Shown piece by piece: positions 1 through 12,906 of a stretch of DNA of 12,906 nucleotides. The stretch's first letter is position 1; every line of letters starts with the position of its first letter. Under the pieces are notes generated by a model that was not told the DNA's origin, searched no databases, and saw only the letters and a list, made by a program, of their open reading frames with translations. Origin of the DNA: Candidatus Heimdallarchaeota archaeon (GTDB lineage Archaea; Asgardarchaeota; Heimdallarchaeia; Heimdallarchaeales; Heimdallarchaeaceae); contig JAEOTK010000201.1 in the NCBI GenBank assembly GCA_016839875.1, positions 1 through 12,906 on the forward strand, read 5' to 3'. The position numbers and the translations under genes are program-made.

Positions 1-362
1 CTATTTCATCTTCGGGAGAGACAAAGATTGAGGATCAACTTGCTCTAACTGAAGGATTTGTCGAAATTGAAGTAGTTCTTTCAATACTGGGACATGGTGC
101 AACTGTAACTATAGATAATCTCCAATATAATATTCTTCAATCTTCGGAAGAAACACAACCAGGTATTCCTAGTGAGATAGTTGATATACCATTCTTCAAA
201 GCTCCGAAGAATATAGCTATTGGATTGTTTGTGCTCTTTGATTGTTGGTTGTTATTGGGAATTGTCTTACGAATTTACAGAGGACACAAACTGAAGAAAA
301 AACAGCTTACTGAAAATGATGAGTTCATTTTAGAGATTGCTCAACTCTCTCAAGATTCATAG
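1..362 (+). CDS. C-terminal end of a membrane-anchored surface protein (5' truncated by the window)
   Basis: An open frame enters at position 3 and ends with TAG at 360-362, giving about 119 residues of a protein whose start lies upstream. The first 70 residues are rich in beta-forming and polar residues, as in an extracytoplasmic sandwich domain. Next comes one hydrophobic helix (around IAIGLFVLFDCWLLLGIVL), then a basic stretch (RIYRGHKLKKK), which by the positive-inside rule puts the short acidic C-terminal tail in the cytoplasm. I infer a type I surface protein held by one C-terminal membrane helix. I do not recognise the family. It is followed by a 60-base gap that contains a promoter, so it is probably not in the same transcription unit as the next genes. 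Confidence 0.75.
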   Translation, partial: ISSSGETKIEDQLALTEGFVEIEVVLSILGHGATVTIDNLQYNILQSSEETQPGIPSEIVDIPFFKAPKNIAIGLFVLFDCWLLLGIVLRIYRGHKLKKKQLTENDEFILEIAQLSQDS

Positions 363-394
363 ATTTTAGTCTAATTTCAAATAGATTCTCCTAC

Positions 395-410
395 TTTAAA
401 AACCAATTCA
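395..410 (+). promoter_or_regulatory. Archaeal promoter P1: TATA box plus CAATTCA element
   Basis: TTTAAAAA at 395-402 is followed by CAATTCA at 404-410, and the next ATG is at 423. An archaeal TATA box lies about 25 bases before the transcript start, so the mRNA would begin at or next to the ATG (leaderless). The same two-part pattern with the same spacing precedes the genes at 3344 and 9195, which is the main reason to believe it. Confidence 0.55.
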
Positions 411-422
411 CTGATTGTACAA

Positions 423-1817
423 ATGAGCATGGCATTTACATCCACTATATTTAGCAAACTAAAGCAATTTAGTAAAAATCAGAAGAATAGTATAAAGGAG
501 AAACTCTATTCTAAAGGAGAGTTTCCTTTGTATTTCCAGATATTCATTGCAATAATCTTCTGGTTGTTTTTATTCGTTCTTTTGCTTATTGTTTGGAATC
601 CAGAAATGAAGTGGAGCCTTGGTATCATTGCAGTAGTTGGAGCATATTTAGTAGTTGAAGCAGTAAATTATGTTGGTCGAAAAACTGTTGCAAAAGATTC
701 AAAAGAAGAAGAAGATGTAGAGGATTATGAGATAGAAGAAAAGCTTTCTCCAGAGATGGAACTGCTTGAATACAACTCAATTATTATAAGTGATGTCTTC
801 AAATCTGGAGGATTTGTTTTATCGAAAAAAGACAAAGGAAAATTATTACTCACTCCAGTCATTGTTCAAACTATAAGTTCGATATCATCAACAAATTCCT
901 TATTCAGTTTCCTTTCAGGAACTTCATTGAGAAAAATCAGTTTGAAGTATCATTGCAGTGTAGTAGATTCATCTCGATATGAAGTTCTGCTCCTTAAAGG
1001 TGCTTCTACAAGATGTAGAATAAGATCTTTTTCAAATGCTCTTCTAAAATTGAGAGAGACATTTTTTTATGAGGCGATTGATTTGATTTCAGAATTGAGG
1101 ATAGAGAATAGAATTGAGTTAGAAGCTCCTACATCAGAGATTCTACAGGAATTATTCCCAACTTATTCGAAAATAATCAAGATATCTAGCGATCAATCAG
1201 AAAATGAAAGTATATCCTCTATTTCTTCAAATGAAATTATTGAATTAGAGGAAAAAATTGAGGAAGAAATTATTGAGACAGAAACAGAAGAGGTTCTTCA
1301 GGCTGAAGTTCCAAAGACAGAATATTCTGATAAAGAAGCTCAACAAAGAAATATGATGGTAGAGGTTCTTCTACAAGAACTTGATTTCTCATTTGAATCT
1401 TTCTTGAGTGCTGCAAAAGGCTATTACAAGAAAAGTATAGAAAATAATCTTGGAAAGACCTATCAAATAAAACAAGATAAATTTCTAAAAACAGTCTACT
1501 TGTTTTGCGATAAGAACAATCTTCCATTTTTCTATCCTTCTTATTCATATTTACTAAAGATCATAGAATTTTTGGAGATAGAATTTCCATCTTCTTCCGA
1601 TATAGAGAATTACATCATGAAACTAGCAGATGAGTATATCTCAATAGTAATTCCAGAAGATGTAACTGCTGAACTCAATACTTTCTTAGAACAGAAATTC
1701 AAGAATAATGGAAATGGTCAAACTACATCTAATAGTATGCAAAGTACTGATGTAGAATCAATTCCACTACCCCCATCCAAAGTAACAGAAAATGAAGGAG
1801 ATGAGACAAATGATTGA
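423..1817 (+). CDS. Two-helix membrane protein with large cytoplasmic domain, family unknown
   Basis: The product has 464 residues. A basic N-terminus is followed by two hydrophobic helices at about 36-60 and 63-83, joined by a very short loop, so both ends should be cytoplasmic. An acidic linker (about 92-106) leads to an alpha/beta region (about 108-255), then a strongly acidic low-complexity stretch (about 260-300). A helical domain follows (about 310-430), with a polar disordered tail. No catalytic motif or nucleotide-binding loop is visible, and I do not recognise the family. It is the first gene of unit A and overlaps the next membrane protein, so it may be a membrane scaffold for the ATPases encoded downstream; that is inference. 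The ATG at 423 lies 28 bases after the start of the TATA box. A second in-frame ATG at 429 is possible. Confidence 0.85.
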   Translation: MSMAFTSTIFSKLKQFSKNQKNSIKEKLYSKGEFPLYFQIFIAIIFWLFLFVLLLIVWNPEMKWSLGIIAVVGAYLVVEAVNYVGRKTVAKDSKEEEDVEDYEIEEKLSPEMELLEYNSIIISDVFKSGGFVLSKKDKGKLLLTPVIVQTISSISSTNSLFSFLSGTSLRKISLKYHCSVVDSSRYEVLLLKGASTRCRIRSFSNALLKLRETFFYEAIDLISELRIENRIELEAPTSEILQELFPTYSKIIKISSDQSENESISSISSNEIIELEEKIEEEIIETETEEVLQAEVPKTEYSDKEAQQRNMMVEVLLQELDFSFESFLSAAKGYYKKSIENNLGKTYQIKQDKFLKTVYLFCDKNNLPFFYPSYSYLLKIIEFLEIEFPSSSDIENYIMKLADEYISIVIPEDVTAELNTFLEQKFKNNGNGQTTSNSMQSTDVESIPLPPSKVTENEGDETND

Positions 1818-2466
1818 AGATATGTTTTTCCTGAATATAATAGAATTTTATCTCAAGTTTTGGTTGATTTCTCTATTCTTAAGATGGATATTATCCTTTA
1901 TGCCTGGAAAGATATTTGAGCTAATATCTTTTATTGGTAATTTAGTTCGCCATCCTGTAAAACGGTTTTTCTACTGGTTATACGGAGTAAAAGTTTTAGA
2001 AACCGATTTGGAGAAATCTGTATTTCAAACCGAAGAAGTTGTGAGTTTTGATTGCAGAATAACTTCGAACGTAATCGGTCCACTGCTAATTCTGACATAT
2101 GTTGGGTCTTTCATATTCTACTGGGCTGGATATCTTTATGATATTGAACAAACCTGGATAAGTATAACTCTCTACGTTTTAGCTTTTGCTATAATTCTAA
2201 TGTCAGCTCCTAGCTATCACGAATCAGAAGAGCTGATTAGAGTAAGCATCAAATCGATCTTCATATGGTTAGCAAAAGTAGTAGTACTTTGTATACCAAT
2301 TTACTTACTTCTACATTATCTTGTAGGTATAGAAACACTTGCTCAGGGTGCCTTTATTCTAGCACTGATGATACCATTCTATCATCATAGAGGTGAAGCA
2401 AAAGAGGAGAAATTCGTCAAAACCAAAAAAGCTAAGTTAATCGAGGCTGACCCATTTGGTGAATGA
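1810..2466 (+). CDS. Polytopic membrane protein, family unknown
   Basis: I chose ATG 1810 (218 residues). It overlaps the previous stop by 8 bases, as at the other junctions here, and has GGAG at 1797-1800 with a 9-base gap. An in-frame ATG at 1792 would add six residues. Hydrophobic helices lie at about 13-30, 88-110, 115-134, 149-172 and 176-191, with an amphipathic stretch at 35-46, so four or five membrane passes. Residues 50-85 and the Lys-rich C-terminus (from about 194) are soluble. There is no HExxH, DEDD or other obvious catalytic motif, and I do not recognise the family. Its place between a two-helix membrane protein and a RecA-type ATPase suggests a pore or anchor component of one complex. 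The small VirB3/VirB6/CedA-type membrane proteins of DNA transporters are a structural analogy only. Confidence 0.82.
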   Translation: MIEDMFFLNIIEFYLKFWLISLFLRWILSFMPGKIFELISFIGNLVRHPVKRFFYWLYGVKVLETDLEKSVFQTEEVVSFDCRITSNVIGPLLILTYVGSFIFYWAGYLYDIEQTWISITLYVLAFAIILMSAPSYHESEELIRVSIKSIFIWLAKVVVLCIPIYLLLHYLVGIETLAQGAFILALMIPFYHHRGEAKEEKFVKTKKAKLIEADPFGE

Positions 2467-3292
2467 CAATAATACACCTTTTTCAAGCGTAAAATATCCT
2501 ATGGATAATGAAGAAACGATTGAGAAAACTGCTAAAAATGAAGAAGAAGTAATTCAAGGAACAAGTCAAATTTCTGAGATACCATCAATAGTATCTACAA
2601 AAGAGATTAGATCTCCAGAAAAGAAAATCAATGATGTTCAAATAGAAAGCGAACCAATCCTCGAAGAGGTTGATGAAATCAGCTTTATCGACATTAGAAA
2701 AGAAAATAATCTAATACACATCTATGGTCCTCCTAGCAGCGGAAAAACAACTTTCGCAATACAGGCAGCTATTGAGATATTTCCTCAAAATTCATACTTT
2801 CTGATTACCAGTCATTCAACATCATTTTTGAAAAGAATGAAATTAATGATAGCTGATAATAGATGGAAAGAACACAAAGAATTGAGTAAACATCTTTATC
2901 CAATATCAACCAGCAATTTGGCAGAATTGGAGGAACAAATTGAACAGTTCAAGTTGATTAATCCAAATGAGGTTGGATTAATTGTTATAGATCATATCAC
3001 TGATTACATTCGAGGGGAAATACACAAAGAAGAAAGAAGAATGAGATTAAGAAACATCCTTGAGACACTTTATCTATTAGCTGATGAAAAGCATTGTAAA
3101 GTAATTCTGGTTAATGGTTTTTCTTACAAGGATTCAGCTCCGGCTGAAGATATTATCGAATCTTTTTGTGATTTGACTGTTTTAGCGGAGAATGATGGGA
3201 TGGATACAAATTTACTTGTAGAGGAGGAGAGATTTAAGATTCGATTCGATAATTCTGGAATAAAGAATATTCATTTGAATATCTACTTCTAG
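2459..3292 (+). CDS. RadB-like RecA-family ATPase with acidic N-terminal extension
   Basis: There are 277 residues from GTG 2459, chosen because it gives the same 8-base overlap as the neighbouring junctions; TTG 2456 is the alternative. Residues 1-75 are acidic, Ser/Ile/Lys-rich and probably disordered. The rest is a compact RecA core: Walker A GPPSSGKTT (90-98); Walker B LIVIDHITD with Asp178 followed by an arginine (DYIRGE), as in the ViDSit..yR pattern of RadB and RadA; and a strand (KVILVNGF) where RadB and RadA carry the TNQV sensor. There is no helix-hairpin-helix domain, so it resembles RadB or other archaeal RadA paralogues rather than RadA itself. ATP binding looks intact. The usual Walker B serine is replaced by His179. 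Its place after two membrane genes is unusual and suggests that it works at the membrane. A KaiC-like ATPase is the alternative. Confidence 0.8.
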   Translation: MNDNNTPFSSVKYPMDNEETIEKTAKNEEEVIQGTSQISEIPSIVSTKEIRSPEKKINDVQIESEPILEEVDEISFIDIRKENNLIHIYGPPSSGKTTFAIQAAIEIFPQNSYFLITSHSTSFLKRMKLMIADNRWKEHKELSKHLYPISTSNLAELEEQIEQFKLINPNEVGLIVIDHITDYIRGEIHKEERRMRLRNILETLYLLADEKHCKVILVNGFSYKDSAPAEDIIESFCDLTVLAENDGMDTNLLVEEERFKIRFDNSGIKNIHLNIYF

Positions 3293-3309
3293 ATTGAGTA
3301 TTATCCTCG

Positions 3310-3325
3310 TTTTTAAATCAATTCA
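3310..3325 (+). promoter_or_regulatory. Archaeal promoter P2: TATA box plus CAATTCA element
   Basis: In the 51-base gap before the gene at 3344, TTTTTAAAT (3310-3318) is followed directly by CAATTCA (3319-3325), in the same register as P1. The expected transcript start is about 3339, which leaves only a few bases of leader. It probably drives the nuclease-like, HerA-like and helicase genes as one mRNA. Confidence 0.55.
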
Positions 3326-3343
3326 AGTATAATAGGTTGAAAC

Positions 3344-3814
3344 ATGGCTTACAGTATTGAGAATCAGTTAGTAGATGAACTTGCTGATAAATGGAAAAAC
3401 GAAGAAAAGCAAGTTGTGAAGGAGTTAACTATCCCTATTGTAAATCAGATTTATTACGATAATTATCTAGAAGGAAGAGAATATATTAGAATAGACCTTG
3501 CAGCTTACGATGATCAAACTGATGAGATTATCTTCGTAGAAGCTGAAAATGGACTTTATCTACAACATCCTCAGATATATCTTCCATTTTGTAATAAGCT
3601 TTACATACTATGCCCAGAAGACAAATCTTCATTCAGAGATGAACAAATAAAATGGAGCAAAAGTGAAGGAATTGGGATTATAGAGAGGGCAAAAACTGGA
3701 GGTTTGAATGTCTCATTAAATCCAACTTCAAGGAATATTTTTCCGGCTGTTAATGCTTTCGTGAAATCTAGGTTTTTCAAAAGAGTAGAGAAGGAGAGGA
3801 AAAAAAATGCTTAG
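3344..3814 (+). CDS. PD-(D/E)XK-fold nuclease-like protein with variant active site
   Basis: The 156-residue product has the layout of the restriction-endonuclease-like (PD-(D/E)XK) fold. Glu6 lies in the first helix, Asp51 ends a strand in RIDLAAYD, and Glu66-Ala-Glu68 ends the next strand (IIFVEAENG). A helix containing Gln74/Gln77 and Tyr79 follows, resembling the Q..xY motif of RecB-type nucleases. The normal E-x-K lysine is Glu68, so cleavage activity is uncertain; it may be a variant nuclease or a DNA-binding or structural relative. It is the first gene of unit B and overlaps the HerA-fold gene by 8 bases. In many archaea HerA is paired with the NurA nuclease. This protein is not NurA but holds the equivalent genomic position. 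The ATG at 3344 follows the promoter closely. Confidence 0.65.
   Translation: MAYSIENQLVDELADKWKNEEKQVVKELTIPIVNQIYYDNYLEGREYIRIDLAAYDDQTDEIIFVEAENGLYLQHPQIYLPFCNKLYILCPEDKSSFRDEQIKWSKSEGIGIIERAKTGGLNVSLNPTSRNIFPAVNAFVKSRFFKRVEKERKKNA
3793..3799 (+). promoter_or_regulatory. Strong ribosome-binding site inside the end of the nuclease-like gene
   Basis: GGAGAGG ends 7 bases before ATG 3807. It lies within the last codons of the upstream gene and fixes the start of the HerA-like protein, supporting coupled translation across the 8-base overlap. Confidence 0.6.
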
Positions 3815-6800
3815 ACTTCCAACAAGAAAAAAACAAACAAACAGACTATATGGTCCAAAGAAGACTCTATATATCCTGAAGGATAAAAATAAAGTTACAA
3901 TTTATGCGACTTTTATCATTAAACCATACAAAGCAATAGATGTAGAAGAAGATTCGAAGAAGAGATTCCCATATAACCAGAAACAAGAGGAGAAAAAAGA
4001 TCCTCTACTTTTGTTATTGAATCAGCTGAAGCATCTTAAGATTTCCTTACATAGAATGTTTATTCCAGGAAATGTTTCAAAGAAGAATAAAAAGGAAGAG
4101 AATACAACAAAATCGAAAACAAAGAATACACTTCTTGATGATCTCTTTGTTGAAGATAACAGCTCAATTGAGGTTTCCCTATCATTCTATATTGTAAAAG
4201 TATGGAAAGAATTCAGCCTTCTAGAATCTTTTTATTCTATAGAAGAACTGGTTGAAGATTTTCGAGCTCTACTGCGAAATGAATTGAAGCAGAAGCTTGA
4301 GAACGTAGGTAGAGTAGGCAGAATATTAGGAAGTACTCTTGAGGAATTTATTCTTTACAGTACTCTCGATCATAGTAATTTTCTATCTTCTGATAACAAA
4401 ATATTTAGTGATTTGACTAAGGATTATGCTGTAATTGAAAAAAACACAGATTTTCACAAATCGTTCAAACCAGGTCCAGCTGTAGATTTGAGACCTGAAA
4501 GCGTATTCTCATTTCCCACAGGAATAACATCAGATGACAATTTGCTAATTGGTCTAGCTGATAATGATTCTCCAATAGGATTTCCACCTAACCCCATGTT
4601 TCCTTTGTTAATATCTGGAGATAAAAGAACTAGAGAGATTATAACATGTAAGCTATTTGAACAAAATAAGAATTTCATTTTACTAGATCCCAAATCTAAT
4701 CTGGAATTCAAGGATAGGATAAAATCCTCTTTTGACTATCTAACATTAGGTGAGGATTTTCTGTTTAATGTATTAACTCCAGTCACAGCAGAATCTTATA
4801 TGACTGAAAAGATTTCGTCTCAATATCTTGGAAATTTTATAGATATTATCAAAGCAGTATCAGATGTGAGAAATGATGCAGCTGTTTTATTGAGAGATCT
4901 CATAGATTTCTATGTAAATGAATACCAAGAGGAACAAGAAGAGATACTCTTCCCACGTCATGATACACCAGTATCATTGGATGACCTCTACACAATGTTA
5001 ACTGTAGATCCTGGTGGTTTGATAATTACTGATTTTCAGCTTTCTACTGTGAGAGCTTTGATTAATGACATAAGGGATGTTAGTATAAGTGAAACAACTA
5101 GAATCAATGAAATAAGAGGATTAGAACAGCTGTTTTCATCCAGTAAAATTATCGATTTTAGTGCTCAAGGTTACAAAATTCAGAAGCTTTTCCTTTATTC
5201 ATTTTTACTTCAATTAACTGTTATCACTCAAGTAATGGATTTTGATGAAGATATCCTGATTTATATCGATGATGCTGAATTATTCTTCTCAAGAGAAATT
5301 GAAAAAACAATTTTAAAACATATACTCAAAAAACTTGAAAACAGCCCTTTCAAACTTATATTTTCTACACCTTTCCCATCTCAATTGGCTTCAGCTGTTT
5401 TTGATCTTACACACAATAGAATCATTGGTAATCTGAAATCAGCTAGGTGTCTAAAACTAATTTCTGATTCCCATGGGTTGGATAAAATCCAACATGAGTT
5501 TATTCGACGACTACCTAAGAATAATTTTTTGTTAGTACGAGAAGATCTTCAGGAGAAACCTATTTTGTTAAGATTCTTTCCAGATGAAGCAGATAGACAT
5601 GATACAGAGAAACTTGAAAGGGTTATGCAAAAGGAATCAAAGCAAATCGAGGATAAGTTTGGAGAAACACAAATATCTCCTAACTTAGAAGAATTTTCGA
5701 AATTGTATCCTGTTATGTTAGACGTATTAGAAAAACTCTCAACAAAGGTGAACAGAGGGATAAATACTGAATCAATTGTTAATCTCTTCCCAAATAGGGA
5801 AACTAAGGATGTCAAGGAAACCGTATCTATTCTTGAATTATATGGATATATTTTCATAGAAACAGTTGATAAAAGAGGAAAAAAAGGAGAATATTGGACG
5901 AAAATTACTCCTCGAGGAAAGAAGTTTCTGGATAAATTGAAGTACAAAGAATTAATCAAAGAGAGGAATAAAGAAGCTGAGAATTTACAGAAACAAGAAT
6001 CAGGTTCAAAAGACGATTTATCTTCCTTTGTTGAATCATCATTAATTGAAGACACTCAAACAAAAACACATGAATTAGATAATGATAGAGAAAGTCTTCA
6101 GAACATAAGAAAAAGTATTCAAGATATTAGGGATTCTAAAGATGAAGTCAAAGAGAAACTTGGAGCTCTTAATCTTATTCTTAAGAAACTTATGTCTGAT
6201 ATAGATAGCAGTCAAGAAGACGATTACCATAGACTCAATGAATTTAGAGCATCTCTAACAAACTTAATTCTTGAAGAGAAATCGCTTAAGAATATACCTG
6301 CAAAAATCCAAAAGAGAATTTTTGATAAATCTCTCTCTCTTATTGATGAAATCCAGATTCAATCTTCGTTTAAAGGAAAAAGACTTTCAGATGAAGATGA
6401 AAAAAATGTGAACAGAATTATAGAAAATGAACTAAAATCTGATAAATGGAGAGACTTTGAAAGAGAAGTCTTCCTAACAGAGATTCCAGAATTATCAAAA
6501 ATAGGTAAAAAGAACAAGAAAATCACGGATTTCCTTAGTTCTGAAAATCCTGAAGTTATACTGAGAGGTTTAGAACTCTCAATTGATATACCGAAGAAGG
6601 AGTTTGTTTTTGCTGCTAAAAAAACGATAGCTTCGCTTATGCAAATCAAGATGAGATTTTACCCAAATATGGACATAGAAACATATCTAGAAGAAATCTG
6701 CACATTTTTTGAAAATCAAAGTATGCCGGAGCCATTTGAAAACTCTATGCAATTGATCAGCGAATATGCACTACTAAAGATAGTTGGATCAAAGCATACA

Positions 6801-6944
6801 ACAGAACAAAAAAAGAGAAAGAAGATAATCGAAATCATACAGGAAGAATCTGATTCTTTTGTTTTCGATTTTACAGATAAGGAAAAGGGTAGTATTGTAA
6901 ATCAATTGATTTCAAAACTGAGGAAGAGAATGAATAATGCATGA
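3807..6944 (+). CDS. HerA/VirB4-fold ATPase-like protein with degenerate Walker A, winged helix and coiled coil
   Basis: The product has 1045 residues. The N-terminal ~240 residues are a basic, partly beta region of unknown fold. The core (about 245-590) follows the HerA/VirB4/DUF87 order: IGLADNDSPIGF (the family's G...dg.pv strand); the P-loop position, which reads SGDKRTRE (270-277) and lacks the GK[ST] signature; ILLDPKSN (as in viDpkGE); a helical insert; a Walker B-like strand IYIDDAE (485-491, DD in place of DE); and FSTPFPSQLA (as in aTQ.Ps.la). A winged helix follows (about 628-710), then charged coiled-coil segments (about 711-840) and a C-terminal helical domain. The fold assignment rests on motif order. 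Loss of the P-loop implies no normal ATP hydrolysis, so it may be a structural ring or act with an active partner. The start is fixed by GGAGAGG at 3793-3799. It overlaps both neighbours by 8 bases. Confidence 0.72.
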   Translation: MLRLPTRKKQTNRLYGPKKTLYILKDKNKVTIYATFIIKPYKAIDVEEDSKKRFPYNQKQEEKKDPLLLLLNQLKHLKISLHRMFIPGNVSKKNKKEENTTKSKTKNTLLDDLFVEDNSSIEVSLSFYIVKVWKEFSLLESFYSIEELVEDFRALLRNELKQKLENVGRVGRILGSTLEEFILYSTLDHSNFLSSDNKIFSDLTKDYAVIEKNTDFHKSFKPGPAVDLRPESVFSFPTGITSDDNLLIGLADNDSPIGFPPNPMFPLLISGDKRTREIITCKLFEQNKNFILLDPKSNLEFKDRIKSSFDYLTLGEDFLFNVLTPVTAESYMTEKISSQYLGNFIDIIKAVSDVRNDAAVLLRDLIDFYVNEYQEEQEEILFPRHDTPVSLDDLYTMLTVDPGGLIITDFQLSTVRALINDIRDVSISETTRINEIRGLEQLFSSSKIIDFSAQGYKIQKLFLYSFLLQLTVITQVMDFDEDILIYIDDAELFFSREIEKTILKHILKKLENSPFKLIFSTPFPSQLASAVFDLTHNRIIGNLKSARCLKLISDSHGLDKIQHEFIRRLPKNNFLLVREDLQEKPILLRFFPDEADRHDTEKLERVMQKESKQIEDKFGETQISPNLEEFSKLYPVMLDVLEKLSTKVNRGINTESIVNLFPNRETKDVKETVSILELYGYIFIETVDKRGKKGEYWTKITPRGKKFLDKLKYKELIKERNKEAENLQKQESGSKDDLSSFVESSLIEDTQTKTHELDNDRESLQNIRKSIQDIRDSKDEVKEKLGALNLILKKLMSDIDSSQEDDYHRLNEFRASLTNLILEEKSLKNIPAKIQKRIFDKSLSLIDEIQIQSSFKGKRLSDEDEKNVNRIIENELKSDKWRDFEREVFLTEIPELSKIGKKNKKITDFLSSENPEVILRGLELSIDIPKKEFVFAAKKTIASLMQIKMRFYPNMDIETYLEEICTFFENQSMPEPFENSMQLISEYALLKIVGSKHTTEQKKRKKIIEIIQEESDSFVFDFTDKEKGSIVNQLISKLRKRMNNA

Positions 6945-9126
6945 TAAAATGCTGAATGAAAAGGATCTAACAGCGTTTCAGAATAAATGCCTAAATGCTT
7001 TTCAACATAAGAAAGATGTTCTTGCAATTGCACCAAGTTCTGCAGGAAAGACGTTTATAACAGAGAAATTCATCATGGAATATTTCCACTCGATATATGG
7101 CAAATTCCTAAATTCACCTAGAAGATTCAAAGTAGGCTTTGTCTTACCATACAAATCTTTAGCAATTCAAGAGTTTAACAATTTCTCAATTTTGGTTGAA
7201 CAAACCGGAATTAAGGTAATGTTAGCTGTAGGAGGGGTGGAGATAAGGGAAGAAGATGTGGCTGAAGCAAATATTATTGTAGGAACATATGAGAAATTCT
7301 TGACATTACTAAAGAGATATCCTCTTCTAAAGAAATATCTCAAAATTCTATGTCTTGATGAATTCCATTTCTTGGGAACTGAAAGAGGAACAACAATTGA
7401 GGAGATTATATTAGAATGGCAAAGAAGCGAGAACAAGGCACAATTAATTTTACTATCATCTTCAATATCAAATGCTATTGAAATTGCTGACTGGCTGAAT
7501 GTTGTTCCTATAATCGAGAATAGTAGACCAGTACCACTAAGCTATTCACTTGAGATCTCTCCAGATACAATTAAGTTCATTAACAACATTAAGAATGAAC
7601 AAAATCAAATACTAGTATTCAGTCAATCTCGTTCTGAAACCGAATTTGTAGCAGAGAATCTTGCACAAAAAAAGAAAGCAAAGAAGGATACCAGTTTTGA
7701 TGATATTTTCGCTTCTGTTGTAGGTTCAGTAGAGGATGAAAGTATCTCTAAAGCATTGCAAAATGCATATTTCCCTTCGCTTCTAAAGGATGTTATTCAA
7801 AAAGGTATAGCTTATCATCATGCTGGTTTAAGCGATATAATTAGAATGTTTGTTGAGGAGATGTTTCTAAGAGGAGATGTTGACATTTTAGTTTCAACAT
7901 CAACATTGGCAGCTGGAGTAAATCTACCTGCTGATGTTTCAGTTTACACATTGAAACACAGTAGAATAACTTCTGAAAATAACTTGGTTTTTCAAACGCT
8001 AGGAAGAGCAGGAAGATTAGGATATAAAGACAAAGGAAAAGGAATTGTCCTTGTATCTAATGAGAGGATGAGGAAAAAGACTGAAGGAAGGTTTTTCGAC
8101 TTAAGCAGTGAAAACACATATGTTCCCATATACCATGCAATTGAAAGTAAATTTGGTGATTACGACTTTCTGGTTAAGTATTTTCAAGATTGCATGTTTC
8201 ATAATAGTGAAGCATTTTCTAGTAAGTTAACAAATCTGATAGATTATATTGAGGATTCTCTGTGGTTCTATCAAAAACGAACCAAGTTGATGAGAAATGT
8301 AACTGACTATGAGCTGATGAATGCTCTATTTTCATCAACTAGTTCTAATCTTGATACAGGAGAAATCTTAGACTTTTACAAAAGGTTCGATAGTGCTCGC
8401 GGGATTCATGGAAGAAAACTATCAATTCAATCAATAGAAGGCTTAAATCAAGCAGCTGTAGTTGCTAATATCAGAGAACAATCAAAATTACACCAAATCT
8501 ATCTATCTCCGTCTAGGAGAAGTTGTACCTGCCAAAATAAACATTCTAACTTCATTTGCAGACATCAGAGATTTTTGTTAGAACAATATCCTGAAGCTCA
8601 AGAAAGATGGCTGAACAATTATGGAATTTTTGATTTTCTAACTAAAGAAGGATTCATTGTTAAATCCTCTGGAGAAAAACTTAATCTTACATACATGGGA
8701 CAGATAAATGCAAGATATTTTATTCACCCTTACGATTTCCTAGATTACTTAGAATTTTGTAGTACTAACCAAGAGATTACCATAACTCAATACCTGAAAC
8801 AGTTTATCACCAAAGATAAGAGAATTAAGCAAGAGATCAAATCAAATGAACTTTCCTCACTGCAAGCGATAAAATTCGCTCAGGACATAGTTAATGGGAA
8901 GGAGGTTATAGATATCTGTTCAAAATACAATGTAAGTGATAGTTTCATTAATGATTGGAGAGAAAGCATTTACAGATTTATGAAGATGTTTCAGTCAATC
9001 AACTATTTTACAGGTAAGAAAGATGAAGCAGAAAAGATCTCTAAACTATTAGAAACTAGTAAAGGAATTTTGGAGATAGACTACCTCCTATCTAAAGAAA
9101 AACGAAGTAATCAAGCACTAACTTAG
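6937..9126 (+). CDS. Ski2/Hel308-type DNA helicase with SWIM zinc-binding motif
   Basis: There are 729 residues. Superfamily 2 motifs appear in order: I, APSSAGKT (32-39); II, DEFH (141-144); III, LLSSSIS (about 172-178, SSS in place of SAT); IV, around ILVFSQSRSETE (about 224); V, STSTLAAGVNLP (about 320-331); VI, QTLGRAGR (353-360). This set is typical of Ski2-like helicases such as Hel308, an archaeal 3'-5' helicase acting at stalled forks. Beyond the core lies a SWIM motif, C530-T-C532-x8-C541-R-H543, then a winged-helix ending typical of the family (GFIVKSSGEKLNLTYMGQ) and a helical C-terminal domain. SWIM motifs bind zinc and mediate DNA or protein contacts. The ATPase looks fully active, unlike the neighbouring HerA-fold protein. 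The ATG at 6937 overlaps the previous stop by 8 bases, with GAGG at 6920-6923. ATG 6949 is an alternative start. Confidence 0.88.
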   Translation: MHDKMLNEKDLTAFQNKCLNAFQHKKDVLAIAPSSAGKTFITEKFIMEYFHSIYGKFLNSPRRFKVGFVLPYKSLAIQEFNNFSILVEQTGIKVMLAVGGVEIREEDVAEANIIVGTYEKFLTLLKRYPLLKKYLKILCLDEFHFLGTERGTTIEEIILEWQRSENKAQLILLSSSISNAIEIADWLNVVPIIENSRPVPLSYSLEISPDTIKFINNIKNEQNQILVFSQSRSETEFVAENLAQKKKAKKDTSFDDIFASVVGSVEDESISKALQNAYFPSLLKDVIQKGIAYHHAGLSDIIRMFVEEMFLRGDVDILVSTSTLAAGVNLPADVSVYTLKHSRITSENNLVFQTLGRAGRLGYKDKGKGIVLVSNERMRKKTEGRFFDLSSENTYVPIYHAIESKFGDYDFLVKYFQDCMFHNSEAFSSKLTNLIDYIEDSLWFYQKRTKLMRNVTDYELMNALFSSTSSNLDTGEILDFYKRFDSARGIHGRKLSIQSIEGLNQAAVVANIREQSKLHQIYLSPSRRSCTCQNKHSNFICRHQRFLLEQYPEAQERWLNNYGIFDFLTKEGFIVKSSGEKLNLTYMGQINARYFIHPYDFLDYLEFCSTNQEITITQYLKQFITKDKRIKQEIKSNELSSLQAIKFAQDIVNGKEVIDICSKYNVSDSFINDWRESIYRFMKMFQSINYFTGKKDEAEKISKLLETSKGILEIDYLLSKEKRSNQALT

Positions 9127-9145
9127 AAGAGTATTTTCGGTCAAG

Positions 9146-9151
9146 TTTTTT
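9146..9151 (+). terminator. Possible archaeal oligo-T terminator after the helicase gene
   Basis: A run of six T lies 20 bases after the helicase stop and just before promoter P3. Archaeal RNA polymerase can terminate on such runs without a hairpin. It is short, and I see no supporting stem, so this is tentative. Confidence 0.3.
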
Positions 9152-9156
9152 CTCAC

Positions 9157-9173
9157 TTTATAAGTCAATTTCA
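9157..9173 (+). promoter_or_regulatory. Archaeal promoter P3: TATA box plus CAATTTCA element
   Basis: TTTATAAG (9157-9164) is followed by CAATTTCA (9166-9173), matching the layout of P1 and P2 with one extra T. The ATG at 9195 is 38 bases from the start of the TATA box, so a leader of about 10 bases is expected. This gives the recombinase its own transcript, separate from the helicase gene. Confidence 0.6.
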
Positions 9174-9194
9174 CAATATAAACTTAGAAAAGAC

Positions 9195-10391
9195 ATGGCA
9201 AGCTTAAATAAAAATAGTGAAAAAGCTGAAAAAGCTGCTGGAAGTGCGAAAAAAACCACTAATAAAGCAGATCCATTAATGAAATTCTTGTCAGGCATTA
9301 AAGGTCTTTCAGACACTATGAAAAAACGAGTACACAAAGTACTAACGACAGAAGGAATTGTTGATCCTAGGGGAATTCAAGCTTTAACAAAGAAACAACT
9401 AGAACAACTTCCTGGAATTAGTGATGCTACTGCAAGTCTTCTGTTTGAAAATCTTGAAGTCAAATCAGAAGGGAAAATCTTTCTTTCTCTTGAAGAGAGA
9501 GAGGAATTGGAGACGGTCAGATCTAAGATACTCACAGGTGCAAAAGAACTAGACGATATACTTCAAGGAGGAATACCTACAGGAACATTTGTAGAATTAT
9601 ATGGTTCTCCTCAGTCTGGGAAAACTCAGATATGTTATACTCTGAGCGCGAACACTCTCCTTCCTAAGGATTTTGGAGGATTGGAGGCAGGAGTAATTTG
9701 GTTAGACACTGAAGGTTCATTTAATGTACAAAGATTGAAACAGATTCTCTCATATTATCAGTACACATACAATTTACCAAAAGATAAACCAGATACAAGC
9801 AAATTTGTAGTTGCTTCTGCAAGAACCTTAGCTCAGATTGAACAAGCAATCAAAGAAGCTGGAAGAATCATTCCAAAGAACAATGTCAAATTACTTATCG
9901 TTGACAGTCTCATGGATCCATTCAGAAGTGAATATGGAGGACTAGGTCAACTTGCTGATAGACAAAAACACCTGAATAGAGTTTTGCATTCCTTAATGAG
10001 AATTGCTGAAGCATATGATTTAGCAGTTGTATACACCAACCAAGTGATGGCAAATCCTGATCCTTTTGCAACTGCAATGGACAAAGTAATGCCTGTTGGT
10101 GGATTTGTTCTGGGACATGCAAGTGATATCCGTTTATGGTTACGAAGAGCAACCTCAAAAATTAGGAATCAGTATGAAGCTCCAAATGCTCGAAGAGCAC
10201 TAATTACTGACTGTGGATGGCTTCCTCAAGTTGAATGCCACTTTTCCATAGGAGTTTTTGGGATTTGTGACGTTGAAAACGAAGCTAAACATAAAAAATT
10301 AGCTTTAGAAATTGGTTTGGGTTTAGATCAACAAACTCCTGAGGAAGAAGAAGAAGAAGAAGTTCAGACAGAGTTTGCTACCATAGACTGA
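9195..10391 (+). CDS. radA: RadA/RAD51-family recombinase, divergent
   Basis: There are 398 residues. A Lys/Ala-rich leader (1-28) precedes a helix-hairpin-helix domain (about 30-90, LPGISDATA). The RecA core has Walker A GSPQSGKT (137-144), DTEGSF, Walker B LLIVDSL with Asp237 followed by DPFRSEYGG, NQVMANPD (282-289), and GG at 302-303 in the L2 loop followed by LGHASDIRLWLRR. This order is that of archaeal RadA, which forms filaments on single-stranded DNA and catalyses strand exchange. Departures from typical RadA: the oligomerisation motif F-x-x-A reads FLSL (96-99); the usual PhLPEgE..F near the end reads GWLPQVECHF; and a seven-Glu run sits in the tail. It may be this organism's main RadA or a paralogue. 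The ATP site looks intact. It has its own promoter and lies 12 bases before a secreted-protein gene. Confidence 0.85.
   Translation: MASLNKNSEKAEKAAGSAKKTTNKADPLMKFLSGIKGLSDTMKKRVHKVLTTEGIVDPRGIQALTKKQLEQLPGISDATASLLFENLEVKSEGKIFLSLEEREELETVRSKILTGAKELDDILQGGIPTGTFVELYGSPQSGKTQICYTLSANTLLPKDFGGLEAGVIWLDTEGSFNVQRLKQILSYYQYTYNLPKDKPDTSKFVVASARTLAQIEQAIKEAGRIIPKNNVKLLIVDSLMDPFRSEYGGLGQLADRQKHLNRVLHSLMRIAEAYDLAVVYTNQVMANPDPFATAMDKVMPVGGFVLGHASDIRLWLRRATSKIRNQYEAPNARRALITDCGWLPQVECHFSIGVFGICDVENEAKHKKLALEIGLGLDQQTPEEEEEEEVQTEFATID
10341..10361 (+). repeat. GAA triplet run encoding the acidic tail of the RadA-like protein
   Basis: One GAG followed by six GAA codons encodes seven consecutive glutamates near the C-terminus. 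Such a run can change length by slippage without breaking the frame. The usual core ends before it, so the tail is probably a disordered acidic extension. Confidence 0.8.
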
Positions 10392-10403: not shown

Positions 10404-12906
10404 ATGAAAAGGGCTGGTTTCTTTCTCTTCCTATTCTTAATTGTCCCTCTTCCTCTAACTCAAACAATAGTGGAGGGATTCTTTGTTAATTCGACTTCAG
10501 ATGCTGAAGATGCATACAGCTTTACAATTGATACTAGCTCATCTGAATCTACTCAACAACAGATAATCAAGATTGTTTCATCCAAGGATAAGAAACAATA
10601 TACTGATACATCTAAAGATAACTCATTACCAAGGCTTTCTCCGGCTACATATTCGAGTTATACTTCAGCTGTTGCCAATGCTTCAATTATACAGAAGAAT
10701 GAGGTGGTTCAAGCTTCTGCTACTACAGAATTTGAGCTTCTGGGAATGTTTCCTGTTGATCATGGAGATCATTACTGGTATGACCTAGTATCCGTTCTAG
10801 TAGATGAAGATACAGCTGTTGGAGCTCTATCTCATAAACAGATTGCAACCCAATTTTCAATCCCATATAATGCAGAATTCATGTCTTTTTCATTTAATCT
10901 TTCTCAAATTACTTCATTATCATCTAACCAAATTGACTTCTATCTTTCAGATAATCTCCTGAATTACCAATCAGACTATCTAATGAAATATGAAGTAACA
11001 TATCACAATTATAATTTTCACAAAAACAATGTTAACTCTCCACTACTCTTTATGTATTGGGATCATCCTCTCTCATTACAAGTGGACAACCAACTAACAG
11101 CTGATCAAGACTATTATGCGATACTTGAATCAGCGAGTAATTTCTCTCTTCAATATTCGAATGATGTTTCTGGATCTGATGATAATAAGATATTCACCTA
11201 TAATTCAGGTTGGGAGGAACAGAACAATATTGATATGCAATTCGAAGTTTATTCAGGTTCATTACTCCAAACCTCAACTGTGAATTTAAGTGGTCAAACA
11301 ACAGTAATTTTCGATTCTGCAGTAGTTGCTGATAGACATCATAGACTTACAGTAGCTTATTATGATCCTCTACGCTCATATGACAGTTCTTCAGATTTTT
11401 GCGACATAGAAATATTGGATTCTCTCATTCCTGAGTATCTTACACTCACTTCTCCTCCAACTGCTGAATACTCTGATGAAATTGACATAATAGCAAAAGT
11501 CGAAAATATGTATCTTCAACCTTTAACTAACATAAATGTGAGTTTCTATATTTCAGAAGACAATTCCTCATGGTCTTTTCTTTCTTCTGAGCTAACTGAC
11601 ATTGAAGGATTTGCTATAGTGAATTACTTGATTTCTGATGCTTCAGGTATTCTCTATTTCAAATCATCTGCAGGAATACTTGATGATTTCAGTGCTACGG
11701 AAAGGCAAAAAGAGCCTATTCAAGTTCAAGCTCCCAGAATTGATTGTATTTATGGCAGTGCAGTTGGTTCAGCTTCTTTAACTCTCTATTCTCTTGAAAC
11801 CAGAGTTGTGGATAATGAAGGAAATCCAATAGTTGGTTTGATGGTACAATTCTATATGCAAGGATTGATTTTACCTATCATTGTTGCTACAAATACTTCA
11901 GGTTGGGCTGTAACTCCTATTGGATTCTTAGACTGGAATGCAGGATATTATTCTAACTCATATTGGATAGTAATTTCAATGGATTCGAATCTTTATAGTT
12001 ATTCTCCCACAACTTATGGCGATATTAACATATCTCAAAATAACATCTCATTACAAGCTCCAGCTGGAATAGAAGGATATTGGAACGAGCCTTTAGATCT
12101 AGATATACGGTTCTTTGACAGTGATGGAGACTTCATCCCTAATCTCAATTTTGAAATCATTCTCTATGATGAGAACACAGCGATAAATACAACCTTAGGA
12201 ATATTCCAAACAAATTCAACTGGATATGGATCTTTGTCTTTTCCAGCAGAATTCTTTACTCCAGGTAATCATCTGATATATATCAAAGTTAATTCGATGA
12301 ACTATAGTTTGTTTGAACAAGCAGTACCTTTAACTCTATTAAATGATAAAGCAATAATTTCTGTGAATATTAGCAATAACATCACGTACATCTATAATTC
12401 AATCTTACATGTTGATACTTTTGTTACTGATCATTTTGGCAATCCTTTGGAAAATATTTCTGTTCAAATCTATGTTTCTATGCCTAATTATTTTGATTTC
12501 TGGGATGAGATATACACTGTAGTAACTAACAGCTCTGGTATTGCATCTATTGACATTATTCTTACTTTAGATGCTGGTGATATGCTGAACATTCTTATCA
12601 ATACAGCTGATTACTATCAAGACTCCATTCTTTACTATCTTGCAGCTGATCCATTTATATCTTACATAACTTGCATTCAAGCTCCAAGTTCGTTTGAAGA
12701 ATTATCAGATATTTCTTGTACAAATCAAGAAACAATCGAGATAAGAGGAAGGCTTGTTTCAAATGATTTGCCTGTTGTAAATGAACTTGTAACACTAACA
12801 ATCTTAGGGGTGGAATATCAAATCTACACTGATGGAAATGGATATTTCAGTCTCTTCTATTTTGTTGATCAAGGAGGATTCATTGAAGTTTTGGTTGAAT
12901 TTGATA
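10404..12906 (+). CDS. Large secreted or surface protein with Ig-like repeats (3' truncated by the window)
   Basis: The frame stays open from ATG 10404 to the window end, giving 834 codons with no stop. Residues 1-25 form a signal peptide: MKR, then a hydrophobic core (FFLFLFLIVPLPL). A Ser/Thr/Gln-rich stretch (about 27-110) leads to a beta-rich domain (about 110-340) of unknown family. From residue 345 there are at least five Ig-like repeats of about 97-109 residues, recognisable by a strand plus turn such as VVDNEGNP or VTDHFGNP and later TN.SG. At least 15 N-x-S/T sequons suggest heavy glycosylation outside the cell. It probably ends in a membrane anchor beyond the window. The likely role is surface layer or adhesion. 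Its position 12 bases behind a recombinase gene is odd. Confidence 0.88.
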   Translation, partial: MKRAGFFLFLFLIVPLPLTQTIVEGFFVNSTSDAEDAYSFTIDTSSSESTQQQIIKIVSSKDKKQYTDTSKDNSLPRLSPATYSSYTSAVANASIIQKNEVVQASATTEFELLGMFPVDHGDHYWYDLVSVLVDEDTAVGALSHKQIATQFSIPYNAEFMSFSFNLSQITSLSSNQIDFYLSDNLLNYQSDYLMKYEVTYHNYNFHKNNVNSPLLFMYWDHPLSLQVDNQLTADQDYYAILESASNFSLQYSNDVSGSDDNKIFTYNSGWEEQNNIDMQFEVYSGSLLQTSTVNLSGQTTVIFDSAVVADRHHRLTVAYYDPLRSYDSSSDFCDIEILDSLIPEYLTLTSPPTAEYSDEIDIIAKVENMYLQPLTNINVSFYISEDNSSWSFLSSELTDIEGFAIVNYLISDASGILYFKSSAGILDDFSATERQKEPIQVQAPRIDCIYGSAVGSASLTLYSLETRVVDNEGNPIVGLMVQFYMQGLILPIIVATNTSGWAVTPIGFLDWNAGYYSNSYWIVISMDSNLYSYSPTTYGDINISQNNISLQAPAGIEGYWNEPLDLDIRFFDSDGDFIPNLNFEIILYDENTAINTTLGIFQTNSTGYGSLSFPAEFFTPGNHLIYIKVNSMNYSLFEQAVPLTLLNDKAIISVNISNNITYIYNSILHVDTFVTDHFGNPLENISVQIYVSMPNYFDFWDEIYTVVTNSSGIASIDIILTLDAGDMLNILINTADYYQDSILYYLAADPFISYITCIQAPSSFEELSDISCTNQETIEIRGRLVSNDLPVVNELVTLTILGVEYQIYTDGNGYFSLFYFVDQGGFIEVLVEFD
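11436..12906 (+). repeat. Tandem Ig-like (Big-1-like) repeats within the surface-protein gene
   Basis: Five protein-level repeats start at about residues 345, 442, 551, 650 and 759. Three begin with the tripeptide QAP (442-444, 551-553, 759-761). Each has a D-x-x-G-N-P-like turn (degenerate in the first and last copies) and, about 30-45 residues later, a T-N-[ST]-[ST]-G or related turn. The DNA is not repetitive, so the copies are old and diverged. The fifth is cut by the window end. Confidence 0.7.

What the first reader, a model, noticed from the sequence alone, without database searches (positions are those of the whole stretch)
423..10391. Candidate membrane-linked DNA transfer and recombination module
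Seen: two membrane proteins, a RadB-like ATPase, a PD-(D/E)XK-fold protein, a HerA/VirB4-fold protein, a Ski2-type helicase and a RadA-family recombinase, all on one strand, with four overlapping junctions and three look-alike promoters. Known: crenarchaeal DNA import (Ced) combines small membrane proteins with a HerA/VirB4-type ATPase, and HerA-NurA with Hel308 and RadA process DNA ends. Inference: this locus could bring DNA across or up to the membrane, process it and hand it to RadA. None of the genes looks like classical NurA, Mre11 or Rad50, so it is not the standard end-resection operon.
Basis: partly seen in the sequence, partly recalled or inferred. Interest (0 to 1): 0.82.

Follow-up and report, generated by a model that had tools for sequence, protein, structure and literature searches.

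The report
Membrane-tethered recombination kit of Asgard archaea
Some of the archaea thought closest to complex cells carry, next to giant cell-surface proteins, a second set of DNA-recombination genes that includes an apparently inactivated relative of a DNA-pumping ring, tied to the membrane; it looks like a machine for handling DNA at the cell envelope, but it is untested.

Summary
In detail: seven genes on one strand, four overlaps, three TATA-type promoters. The cluster is larger than given: it starts with a ~612-aa anchored surface protein and ends with a ~2,110-aa Ig-domain surface protein that follows the RadA gene by 1-14 nt in 7 of 7 loci (12 nt in the window). The order is largely fixed in Heimdallarchaeota (g4-g5 adjacent 15 of 15, g5-g6 12 of 12) and inherited like housekeeping RadA. 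Diverged forms recur in other Asgard groups.

The nuclease-like protein is a PD-(D/E)XK fold by model. The RadA is a fourth, most diverged paralog. HerA, NurA and (8 of 9 genomes) Hel308 exist elsewhere, so this is a second, membrane-tethered kit.

Best mechanism: a membrane platform that captures, trims and strand-pairs DNA arriving at the envelope (uptake or cell-to-cell exchange). Platform and DNA handling are well supported; transport is inferred. Ced/T4SS membership fails on the ATPase. Novel, untested.

The parts
3..362 (+). C-terminal end of c8, a ~612-aa surface protein: signal peptide, ectodomain, C-terminal TM, short cytosolic tail
   Evidence: 49-67% identity to c8 genes in relatives; full length and TM in relatives; directly upstream of g1 in 7 of 7 loci
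391..402 (+). TATA-type promoter element before g1 (TTTAAA at 395)
   Evidence: similar element in most of the relatives printed
423..1817 (+). g1: N-terminal 2-TM hairpin plus ~380-aa cytosolic domain, no known family
1810..2466 (+). g2: 4-5 TM membrane protein, no known family, 64-81% identical to the window's among 11 relatives
   Evidence: distant homologs in other Asgard genomes, hhalign 99.1%, E 7e-19
2456..3292 (+). g3: RadB-like RecA-fold ATPase with low-complexity N-terminus; P-loop Lys-Thr kept in 14 of 14, the Gly before Lys is Cys or Ala in 5 of them
3308..3318 (+). TATA-type promoter element before g4 (TTTAAA at 3312)
3344..3814 (+). g4: PD-(D/E)XK-fold nuclease-like protein; invariant E27, R49, D51, E66, E68, N69 (ExE in place of ExK)
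3807..6944 (+). g5: HerA-like core without P-loop (about residues 260-600), then a winged-helix-like part (about 635-712) and a helical C-terminus
6937..9126 (+). g6: Ski2/Hel308-type SF2 helicase with C-terminal SWIM-like zinc motif CxCx8CxH (13 of 13)
9156..9164 (+). TATA-type promoter element before g7 (CTTTATAAG)
9195..10391 (+). g7: fourth, most diverged RadA-family paralog; P-loop intact; FxxA-type motif reads FLSL; acidic C-terminus
10404..12905 (+). N-terminal part of c7 (g8 in scripts), a ~2,110-aa Ig-domain surface protein with signal peptide and C-terminal TM, probably co-transcribed with g7 (12-nt gap)

Best explanation
A dedicated, vertically inherited DNA-processing platform at the cell membrane of Asgard archaea, built from paralogs or analogs of the canonical recombination kit. 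SHOWN by sequence: two anchored surface proteins (c8, c7), two membrane proteins (g1, g2), a P-loop-less HerA-like protein (g5), a PD-(D/E)XK-fold protein (g4), a Ski2-type helicase with SWIM-like motif (g6), a RadB-like ATPase (g3) and a diverged RadA (g7), kept together. INFERRED: g5 is an inactive HerA-type ring or clamp, tethered through g1/g2, that holds DNA and positions g4 (taking NurA's place); g6 unwinds, and g3 and g7 load on the single strand for homologous pairing; c7 and c8 reach out to a partner cell or surface. MOST LIKELY use: catching DNA that comes in at the envelope (cell-to-cell exchange or uptake) and handing it to recombination; movement would be driven by g6 and RecA-type filament growth, not by g5.
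For: Conserved order and vertical inheritance: adjacency counts; distances of g5, g6, g4 follow housekeeping RadA (Mantel r 0.86, 0.91, 0.82, each p 0.0005, 10 genomes; a control RadA paralog gives 0.85, p 0.001). Re-association in diverged genomes: G017, at 36% identity for g5, keeps g1-g6, c8 and c7 side by side in another order; five loci of group G055-G063 keep c7-like, c8-like, g2, RadB-like, g5-like and g4 genes; G016 likewise has g5, g4, g2 and a signal-peptide+TM protein. Membrane tether: the same HerA-like core stands behind TM segments in G177-G179 and in G011/G166, whose homolog P0155 is named Njordarchaeota. HerA identity: hhalign to HerA proteins of related genomes 73%, E 3e-5, colinear over 310 columns; to the TM-fused type 97.4%, E 1.1e-11; controls RadA and helicase 0.28% and 0.08%; P0156, a relative of the G166 protein, passes the Pfam HerA_C cut-off, 24 vs 22 bits. 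Paralog kit: HerA-type 9 of 9, NurA 9 of 9, high-scoring Hel308 8 of 9, and in 6 of 9 all three within about 7 kb; four RadA-family clades. g7 and the giant Ig protein 1-14 nt apart, 7 of 7.
Against: No pore, pilin, relaxase or ComEC is known here (ComEC 0 of 9 genomes; pilin and relaxase not searched). g5 has no P-loop, so the obvious motor is missing. The cluster is not always intact: in G004 (L005) g4-c7 lie on another contig than g2; g6-g7 are separated by two genes in L002 and L006, and g7 is missing with 4 kb of room in L017; in G003, G007 and G008 g7 lies on another contig than g5; of 12 genomes of group G041-G054 with both g4 and a g5-like hit, 7 have them within about 7 kb and 5 do not; no g7-type RadA lies in the five G055-G063 stretches read. 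g1 has no detectable homolog in two distant groups. Helicases differ between groups. Another P-loop-bearing DUF87 family scores only 2.7% with g5. Only hydropathy supports the topologies.
Confidence: 0.5

Rival explanations
1. A membrane-anchored repair or chromosome-anchoring platform that never moves DNA across the envelope: it holds broken or replicating chromosomal DNA at the membrane for end trimming and RadA loading.
For: Part-for-part parallel to HerA-NurA-Hel308-RadA; vertical inheritance; no ComEC; XPD-like and Hef-like helicases lie in the cluster of other groups.
Against: Does not explain the two anchored surface proteins, one of about 2,110 aa and apparently in the RadA transcription unit.
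Confidence: 0.28
2. A membrane-linked antiviral or anti-plasmid defence system that senses and degrades incoming DNA (works like Zorya or Kiwa, both recalled).
For: Nuclease fold plus helicase plus membrane proteins; PADLOC gives HamB for g6 (E 4.9e-32, over the SF2 helicase core) and weak mad8 matches for g3, g5 and g7.
Against: Distances follow the species' RadA; the one viral-contig scan with g5 gave no relative; largely fixed gene order; a RadA paralog and Ig proteins are not usual defence parts (recall).
Confidence: 0.1
3. A Ced/Ted or T4SS-type DNA importer that is simply too diverged to recognise.
For: Small membrane proteins with a HerA/VirB4-fold protein; Ted loci also hold HerA and ParA-type genes (PMC9905601 passages), and G013 has a ParA-type ATPase beside its HerA-like protein.
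Against: The ATPase has no P-loop (0 of 19, 0 of 5, 0 of 11, 0 of 3, 0 of 3, 0 of 6), and it matches archaeal HerA.
Confidence: 0.07
4. Two or three unrelated housekeeping units that happen to be neighbours in these genomes.
For: Three promoters; insertions and breaks between units (L005; for G041-G054).
Against: Re-association in rearranged order in G017 and in distant groups; TM-HerA fusions.
Confidence: 0.05

Closest known systems
Archaeal HerA-NurA (with Mre11-Rad50, Hel308, RadA) end-resection kit
   Same: HerA-family core, a nuclease-fold partner encoded next to it, a Ski2-type helicase, RadA-family recombinase
   Different: HerA core without P-loop; PD-(D/E)XK protein instead of NurA (RNase H fold, per PMC9905601 passage); SWIM-like motif on the helicase; RadA is a diverged paralog; membrane and Ig surface proteins attached; HerA and NurA exist elsewhere in 9 of 9 genomes tested
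Ced / Ted DNA import systems of Thermoproteota
   Same: Small membrane proteins beside a HerA/VirB4-fold protein; DNA repair genes near Ted
   Different: No ATPase-competent HerA/VirB4 protein; no pilin recognised (none searched for); giant Ig surface proteins; RadA paralog inside the cluster
Eukaryotic Shu complex (SWS1-SWSAP1, SWIM protein with a Rad51 paralog; SWIM membership recalled)
   Same: SWIM-like motif protein kept together with Rad51/RadA paralogs
   Different: Here the SWIM-like motif sits on a Ski2-type helicase, with membrane proteins; no sequence test of kinship was made
MmcB-like PD-(D/E)XK proteins (PDB 3dnx; family name recalled)
   Different: 13% identity; ExE instead of ExK motif in g4; gene context of 3dnx not looked at

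Membership tests
HerA family (core of g5) | HerA fold, motif order from P-loop strand through Walker B to the last core strand | tested here: met
   hhalign A16 vs HerA proteins 73%, E 3e-5, 310 columns; vs TM-fused type 97.4%; controls 0.3% or less; HerA_C over cut-off for P0156, a relative of the fused type; not confirmed by a structure model
HerA family (core of g5) | Walker A (P-loop) for ATP hydrolysis | tested here: not met
   0 of 19, 0 of 5, 0 of 11, 0 of 3, 0 of 3 rows and 0 of 6 further proteins; HerA rows of A18 9 of 9
HerA family (core of g5) | hexameric ring on DNA | not testable with these tools
   model of g5 failed (pLDDT 46.8)
HerA-NurA end-resection operon | NurA (PF09376) encoded beside HerA | tested here: not met
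   no NurA match among the window's proteins; NurA lies beside a HerA elsewhere in 7 of 9 related genomes
Ced/Ted and T4SS importers | ATP-competent VirB4/HerA-type ATPase | tested here: not met
   no P-loop in g5
Ced/Ted and T4SS importers | VirB6/CedA-like channel and VirB2/CedA1-like pilin | not tested
   no CedA/VirB6/pilin sequences were fetched; g1 and g2 have no Pfam or NCBIfam family over cut-off
PD-(D/E)XK superfamily (g4) | alpha-beta-beta-beta-alpha-beta core | tested here: met
PD-(D/E)XK superfamily (g4) | catalytic D and (D/E)xK | tested here: inconclusive
   D51 and E66xE68 invariant in 68 of 68 rows, the lysine place is Glu
RadA/Rad51 recombinases (g7) | Rad51 domain with intact P-loop | tested here: met
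   PF08423 E 6.5e-56; P-loop 8 of 8
RadA equivalog | score over the NCBI RadA cut-offs | tested here: not met
   219 vs 259 and 192 vs 361 bits
Hel308 | score over NF040935 cut-off (1200 bits) | tested here: not met
   160.7 bits for g6; the Hel308-like copies elsewhere in related genomes score 621-640 in 8 of 9, also under it
Anti-phage defence systems in PADLOC | full-length match to a system protein | tested here: inconclusive
   only matches over shared helicase or ATPase domains

The most novel reading that the evidence does not exclude
Asgard archaea possess their own, previously undescribed genetic-exchange machine: giant Ig surface proteins make contact between cells, a small membrane complex anchors an ATP-dead HerA ring, and a dedicated nuclease, SWIM-type helicase, RadB-like factor and exchange-specific RadA paralog turn incoming DNA into recombinants. 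It would be an archaeal parallel of a recombinase set aside for mating, in the lineage next to eukaryotes.
Probability: 0.33. Interest if true: 0.93.

Novelty: new variant of a known kind. Interest (0 to 1): 0.8.

Why it matters
No DNA-exchange machine of Asgard archaea turned up in the listings, and how recombination became specialised before eukaryotic sex is an open question; a published study finds a RadA duplication in Heimdall- and Gerdarchaea but took long-branch copies out of its data (PMC12722695, passages). A diverged RadA paralog that seems to share a transcription unit with a giant surface protein, beside an apparently ATP-dead, membrane-linked HerA relative, makes that question testable with defined genes. 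It is also the first case that I know of (recall) of a P-loop-less HerA kept over deep time.

Tried and rejected
Own-genome search: not held. AlphaFold of g5 with 19 rows failed, so no fold search was run on it. PDB sequence searches with g5 (single and profile) and g4 found nothing useful. g1 against the 259-aa 2-TM protein of group G055-G063 and against the TM-HerA fusion: no match, so their equivalence rests on topology and position only. The 950-aa DUF87 family as a close parent of g5: not supported (2.7%). A8 against A20 directly: weak (3.5%); A20 is linked through A16 (52%, E 1.4e-4), so A20 as a g5 relative is probable, not certain. Viral origin: the one viral-contig scan with g5 gave no relative; the phage collection gave only 24-26% RecA/UvsX/RadA-type hits for g7 (20 of 21 listed). 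The idea that g7 is the housekeeping RadA: rejected. A last protein search with a broad g5 alignment (A22) found 12 proteins; one named an organism, Njordarchaeota. Literature: (listings); none listed describes this cluster; PMC12722695 and PMC9905601 were seen as passages, PMC11868833 as abstract and outline, all others as listings only. Fold families absent from the structure list are not excluded.

Rows left out: the RadA tree holds 37 rows; of the 10 genomes three 320-aa-type rows (L041 and L047, not caught by the ORF script, and one without locus) and three g7 rows (G003, G007, G008) are not in it. A1 holds 19 of the 31 hits (the window among them); A17 holds the window and 67 of the 120 listed (124 found) hits. 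A18 leaves out the HerA of G001 (94% identical to that of G002).
Full report
What is there. The window (33% GC) codes on one strand for nine proteins, the first and last cut by the window ends. I call them c8 (3-362, C-terminal end), g1 (423-1817), g2 (1810-2466), g3 (2456-3292), g4 (3344-3814), g5 (3807-6944), g6 (6937-9126), g7 (9195-10391) and c7 (10404-12905, N-terminal part). The four overlaps are 8, 11, 8 and 8 nt, and TATA-type boxes stand before g1, g4 and g7 in the window and, in much the same place, in most relatives printed. This suggests three transcription units: g1-g3, g4-g6 and g7-c7.

Whose it is. g5 has 30 homologs besides itself in the protein database; those whose name tells an organism are Heimdallarchaeota, Heimdallarchaeaceae or 'Asgard group archaeon'. 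One pattern scan of the species-genome collection gave 17 loci, all so named. The window's own genome is not held.

Conservation. Among the 17 loci, counting only those that hold both genes, neighbours on one strand are: c8-g1 7 of 7, g1-g2 11 of 11, g2-g3 11 of 11, g3-g4 13 of 14, g4-g5 15 of 15, g5-g6 12 of 12, g6-g7 5 of 7, g7-c7 7 of 7 with gaps of 1-14 nt (the window itself is not counted). Breaks: L004 has one gene between g3 and g4; L002 and L006 have two genes between g6 and g7; L017 has 4 kb of room for g7 but lacks it; in L005 the 2.5 kb before g4 hold other genes, and g2 of that genome (G004) lies on another contig; in G003, G007 and G008 g7 lies on another contig than g5, which in drafts may or may not mean a real break. 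Distances of g5, g6 and g4 between 10 genomes follow those of housekeeping RadA (Mantel r 0.86, 0.91, 0.82; each p 0.0005); a control RadA paralog gives 0.85. The cluster is thus inherited with the chromosome.

Deeper relatives. g5 (profile A1) is in 19 of 227 Asgard genomes, one of them (G017, single 3.33-Mb contig) at 36% identity. In G017 the genes run c7, g1, g2, g3, g4, g5, g6, c8, with g7 about 4 kb away: the same set in a different order. g2 (A3) is in 28 of 227 and g4 (A14) in 42 of 227. I read loci of five of the nine genomes G055-G063: all five hold an Ig giant, a c8-like and a 2-TM protein, g2, a RadB-like protein, a g5-like protein and g4. Pfam names an XPD-like helicase and a Hef-type protein in L065; genes of like size stand at the same places in others, which were not scanned. 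hhalign supports g5 (95.1%, E 3e-8), g2 (99.1%), g4 (99.8%) and c8 (92.5%) but not g1 (0.6%). G016 has a 1,208-aa g5, a DEAD/HhH helicase, an XPD-like helicase, g4, g2, a 2-TM and a signal-peptide+TM protein. Of seven loci read from group G041-G054, four hold a RadA-like gene, six an XPD-like helicase and all seven g4; a g5-like protein (A20) is in 14 of 227 genomes, all in this group. Of the 12 genomes with both g4 and A20 hits, 7 have them within about 7 kb on one contig; in G049 and G051 they are far apart on one contig, and in G042, G043 and G044 on different contigs.

The HerA-like protein. g5 aligns with HerA proteins of related genomes over 310 columns, in register from the P-loop strand through Walker B to the last core strand (73%, E 3e-5); the controls RadA and helicase give 0.28% and 0.08%, while another, P-loop-bearing DUF87 family gives only 2.7%. 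It aligns better with proteins of G177-G179 (97.4%, E 1.1e-11, through the winged-helix part), which carry TM segments before the core. Their profile also finds two 966-972-aa proteins with N-terminal TM in G011 and G166 and shorter ones in G013, G066, G077 and G079. A homolog of the G166 protein, P0155, is named Candidatus Njordarchaeota, and another, P0156, passes the Pfam HerA_C cut-off (24 vs 22 bits); P0156 as predicted begins after the TM region. No P-loop was found: 0 of 19 (A1), 0 of 5 (A8), 0 of 11 (A16, which overlaps A1 and A8), 0 of 3 (A20), 0 of 3 (A21) and 0 of 6 others; HerA rows 9 of 9. The Walker B place reads IDDAELFF-like in A1. ATP hydrolysis is therefore unlikely (inference). 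That a membrane anchor is fused to this core in two groups is the best evidence that g5 works at the membrane through g1 or g2.

The helicase. g6 matches Ski2/Hel308-type helicases and ends in CxCx8CxH, 13 of 13, also in G017 with a like motif; two g6-like helicases near the HerA-like genes of G013 and G066 have similar motifs, the two cut g6-like pieces in the G077 and G079 loci show none. I recall this as the SWIM motif, known from SWS1, a partner of Rad51 paralogs; kinship was not tested.

The recombinases. Ten Heimdall genomes each hold four Rad51-family classes; the tree puts them in four separate groups, g7 with 100/100 support on a stem of 2.7 changes per site (37 rows; the tool warns of long branches, so the order among groups is unsure). 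The motif that reads FxSA, FxNA or FxTA in the housekeeping copies reads FLSL in 8 of 8 g7 rows and FKSL in G017; I recall FxxA as the polymerisation motif. Matsuo et al. report two RadA clades in Heimdall- and Gerdarchaea and took out long-branch copies (PMC12722695, passages); whether g7 is in one of their clades was not tested.

Why a second kit. In 9 related genomes tested, a HerA-type protein is in 9, NurA in 9 and a high-scoring Hel308 in 8; in G001, G002, G004, G009, G010 and G017 the three lie within about 7 kb, away from the window-type cluster. So the standard end-resection set is separate, and the window cluster is a paralogous or analogous kit (HerA to g5, NurA to g4, Hel308 to g6, RadA to g7) with membrane and surface parts added.

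Surface parts. c8 has signal peptide, ~550-aa ectodomain, C-terminal TM and short tail; c7 is 2,110-2,121 aa in the full copies seen, with Ig-like domains, signal peptide and C-terminal TM. In G079 and G077 the RadA-like gene is followed by a large anchored M28-peptidase protein, two small membrane proteins and then the HerA-like gene. A RadA-type gene next to a large surface protein thus recurs.

Mechanism. The simplest reading that uses all parts: surface proteins bring or hold a partner or DNA, g1/g2 form the membrane seat, g5 is an ATP-dead ring or clamp with a winged helix that may bind DNA, g4 trims or nicks, g6 unwinds, g3 and g7 coat the strand and pair it. Platform and DNA handling are well supported; import or exchange is inference (0.5 for the whole statement). 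A membrane-anchored repair platform without transport remains a serious rival (0.28). Defence (0.1) is disfavoured by vertical inheritance. A diverged Ced/T4SS (0.07) fails on the ATPase, but g1/g2 were not compared with CedA or VirB6.

Novelty. All folds are known, and the cytosolic part parallels a known kit, so I file it as a new variant of a known kind; the arrangement with an apparently ATP-dead, membrane-linked HerA and a surface giant matches no system in the listings, which cover open-licence papers only.

Noticed in passing
L002:3209-4438, L010:600-1784, L011:2949-4226, L012:915-2093, L016:3051-4313: A ~400-aa protein (c9) is divergently transcribed right upstream of c8 in 5 loci; the L016 copy has about 5 TM by hydropathy, the L002 copy no Pfam family over cut-off.
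   Followed up: partly
L064:9701-10366: G017 has a second, stand-alone g2 homolog about 270 kb from the cluster (E 3e-36), without the other cluster genes beside it.
   Followed up: partly
L018:949-2211: G001 has an additional, diverged RadA-type copy (420 aa) grouping with the housekeeping clade on a long branch.
   Followed up: no
L029-L038 and L039-L047: Two further Rad51-family paralogs (about 450 and 320 aa) are present in each of the ten Heimdall genomes; their neighbourhoods were not read.
   Followed up: no
L006:8825-13873; L017:4167-8271; L002:15345-17221: Genes on the opposite strand lie between g6 and g7 (L002, L006) or after g6 (L017); those of L006 and L017 belong to one family, c12.
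   Followed up: no
L104:12236-14992; similar-sized genes in L105, L106, L110: Group G041-G054 carries a ~918-aa DEAD helicase beside g4; an MrfA-type zinc domain (PF09369) was shown in the L104 copy, the only one scanned.
   Followed up: partly
L121:845-3385: Beside the TM-HerA protein of G166 lies an 846-aa protein with HEPN and thioredoxin matches just over cut-off.
   Followed up: no
L120:6299-7189: An ATPase with a ParA/MinD-like P-loop (KGGIGKS; assignment by motif, recalled) directly follows the HerA-like gene of G013, as ParA-type genes do at Ted loci.
   Followed up: no
L092:361-3207 and relatives (A19): A separate ~950-aa DUF87 family with intact P-loop (such as GQIGRGKT) occurs in these genomes; role unknown.
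   Followed up: partly
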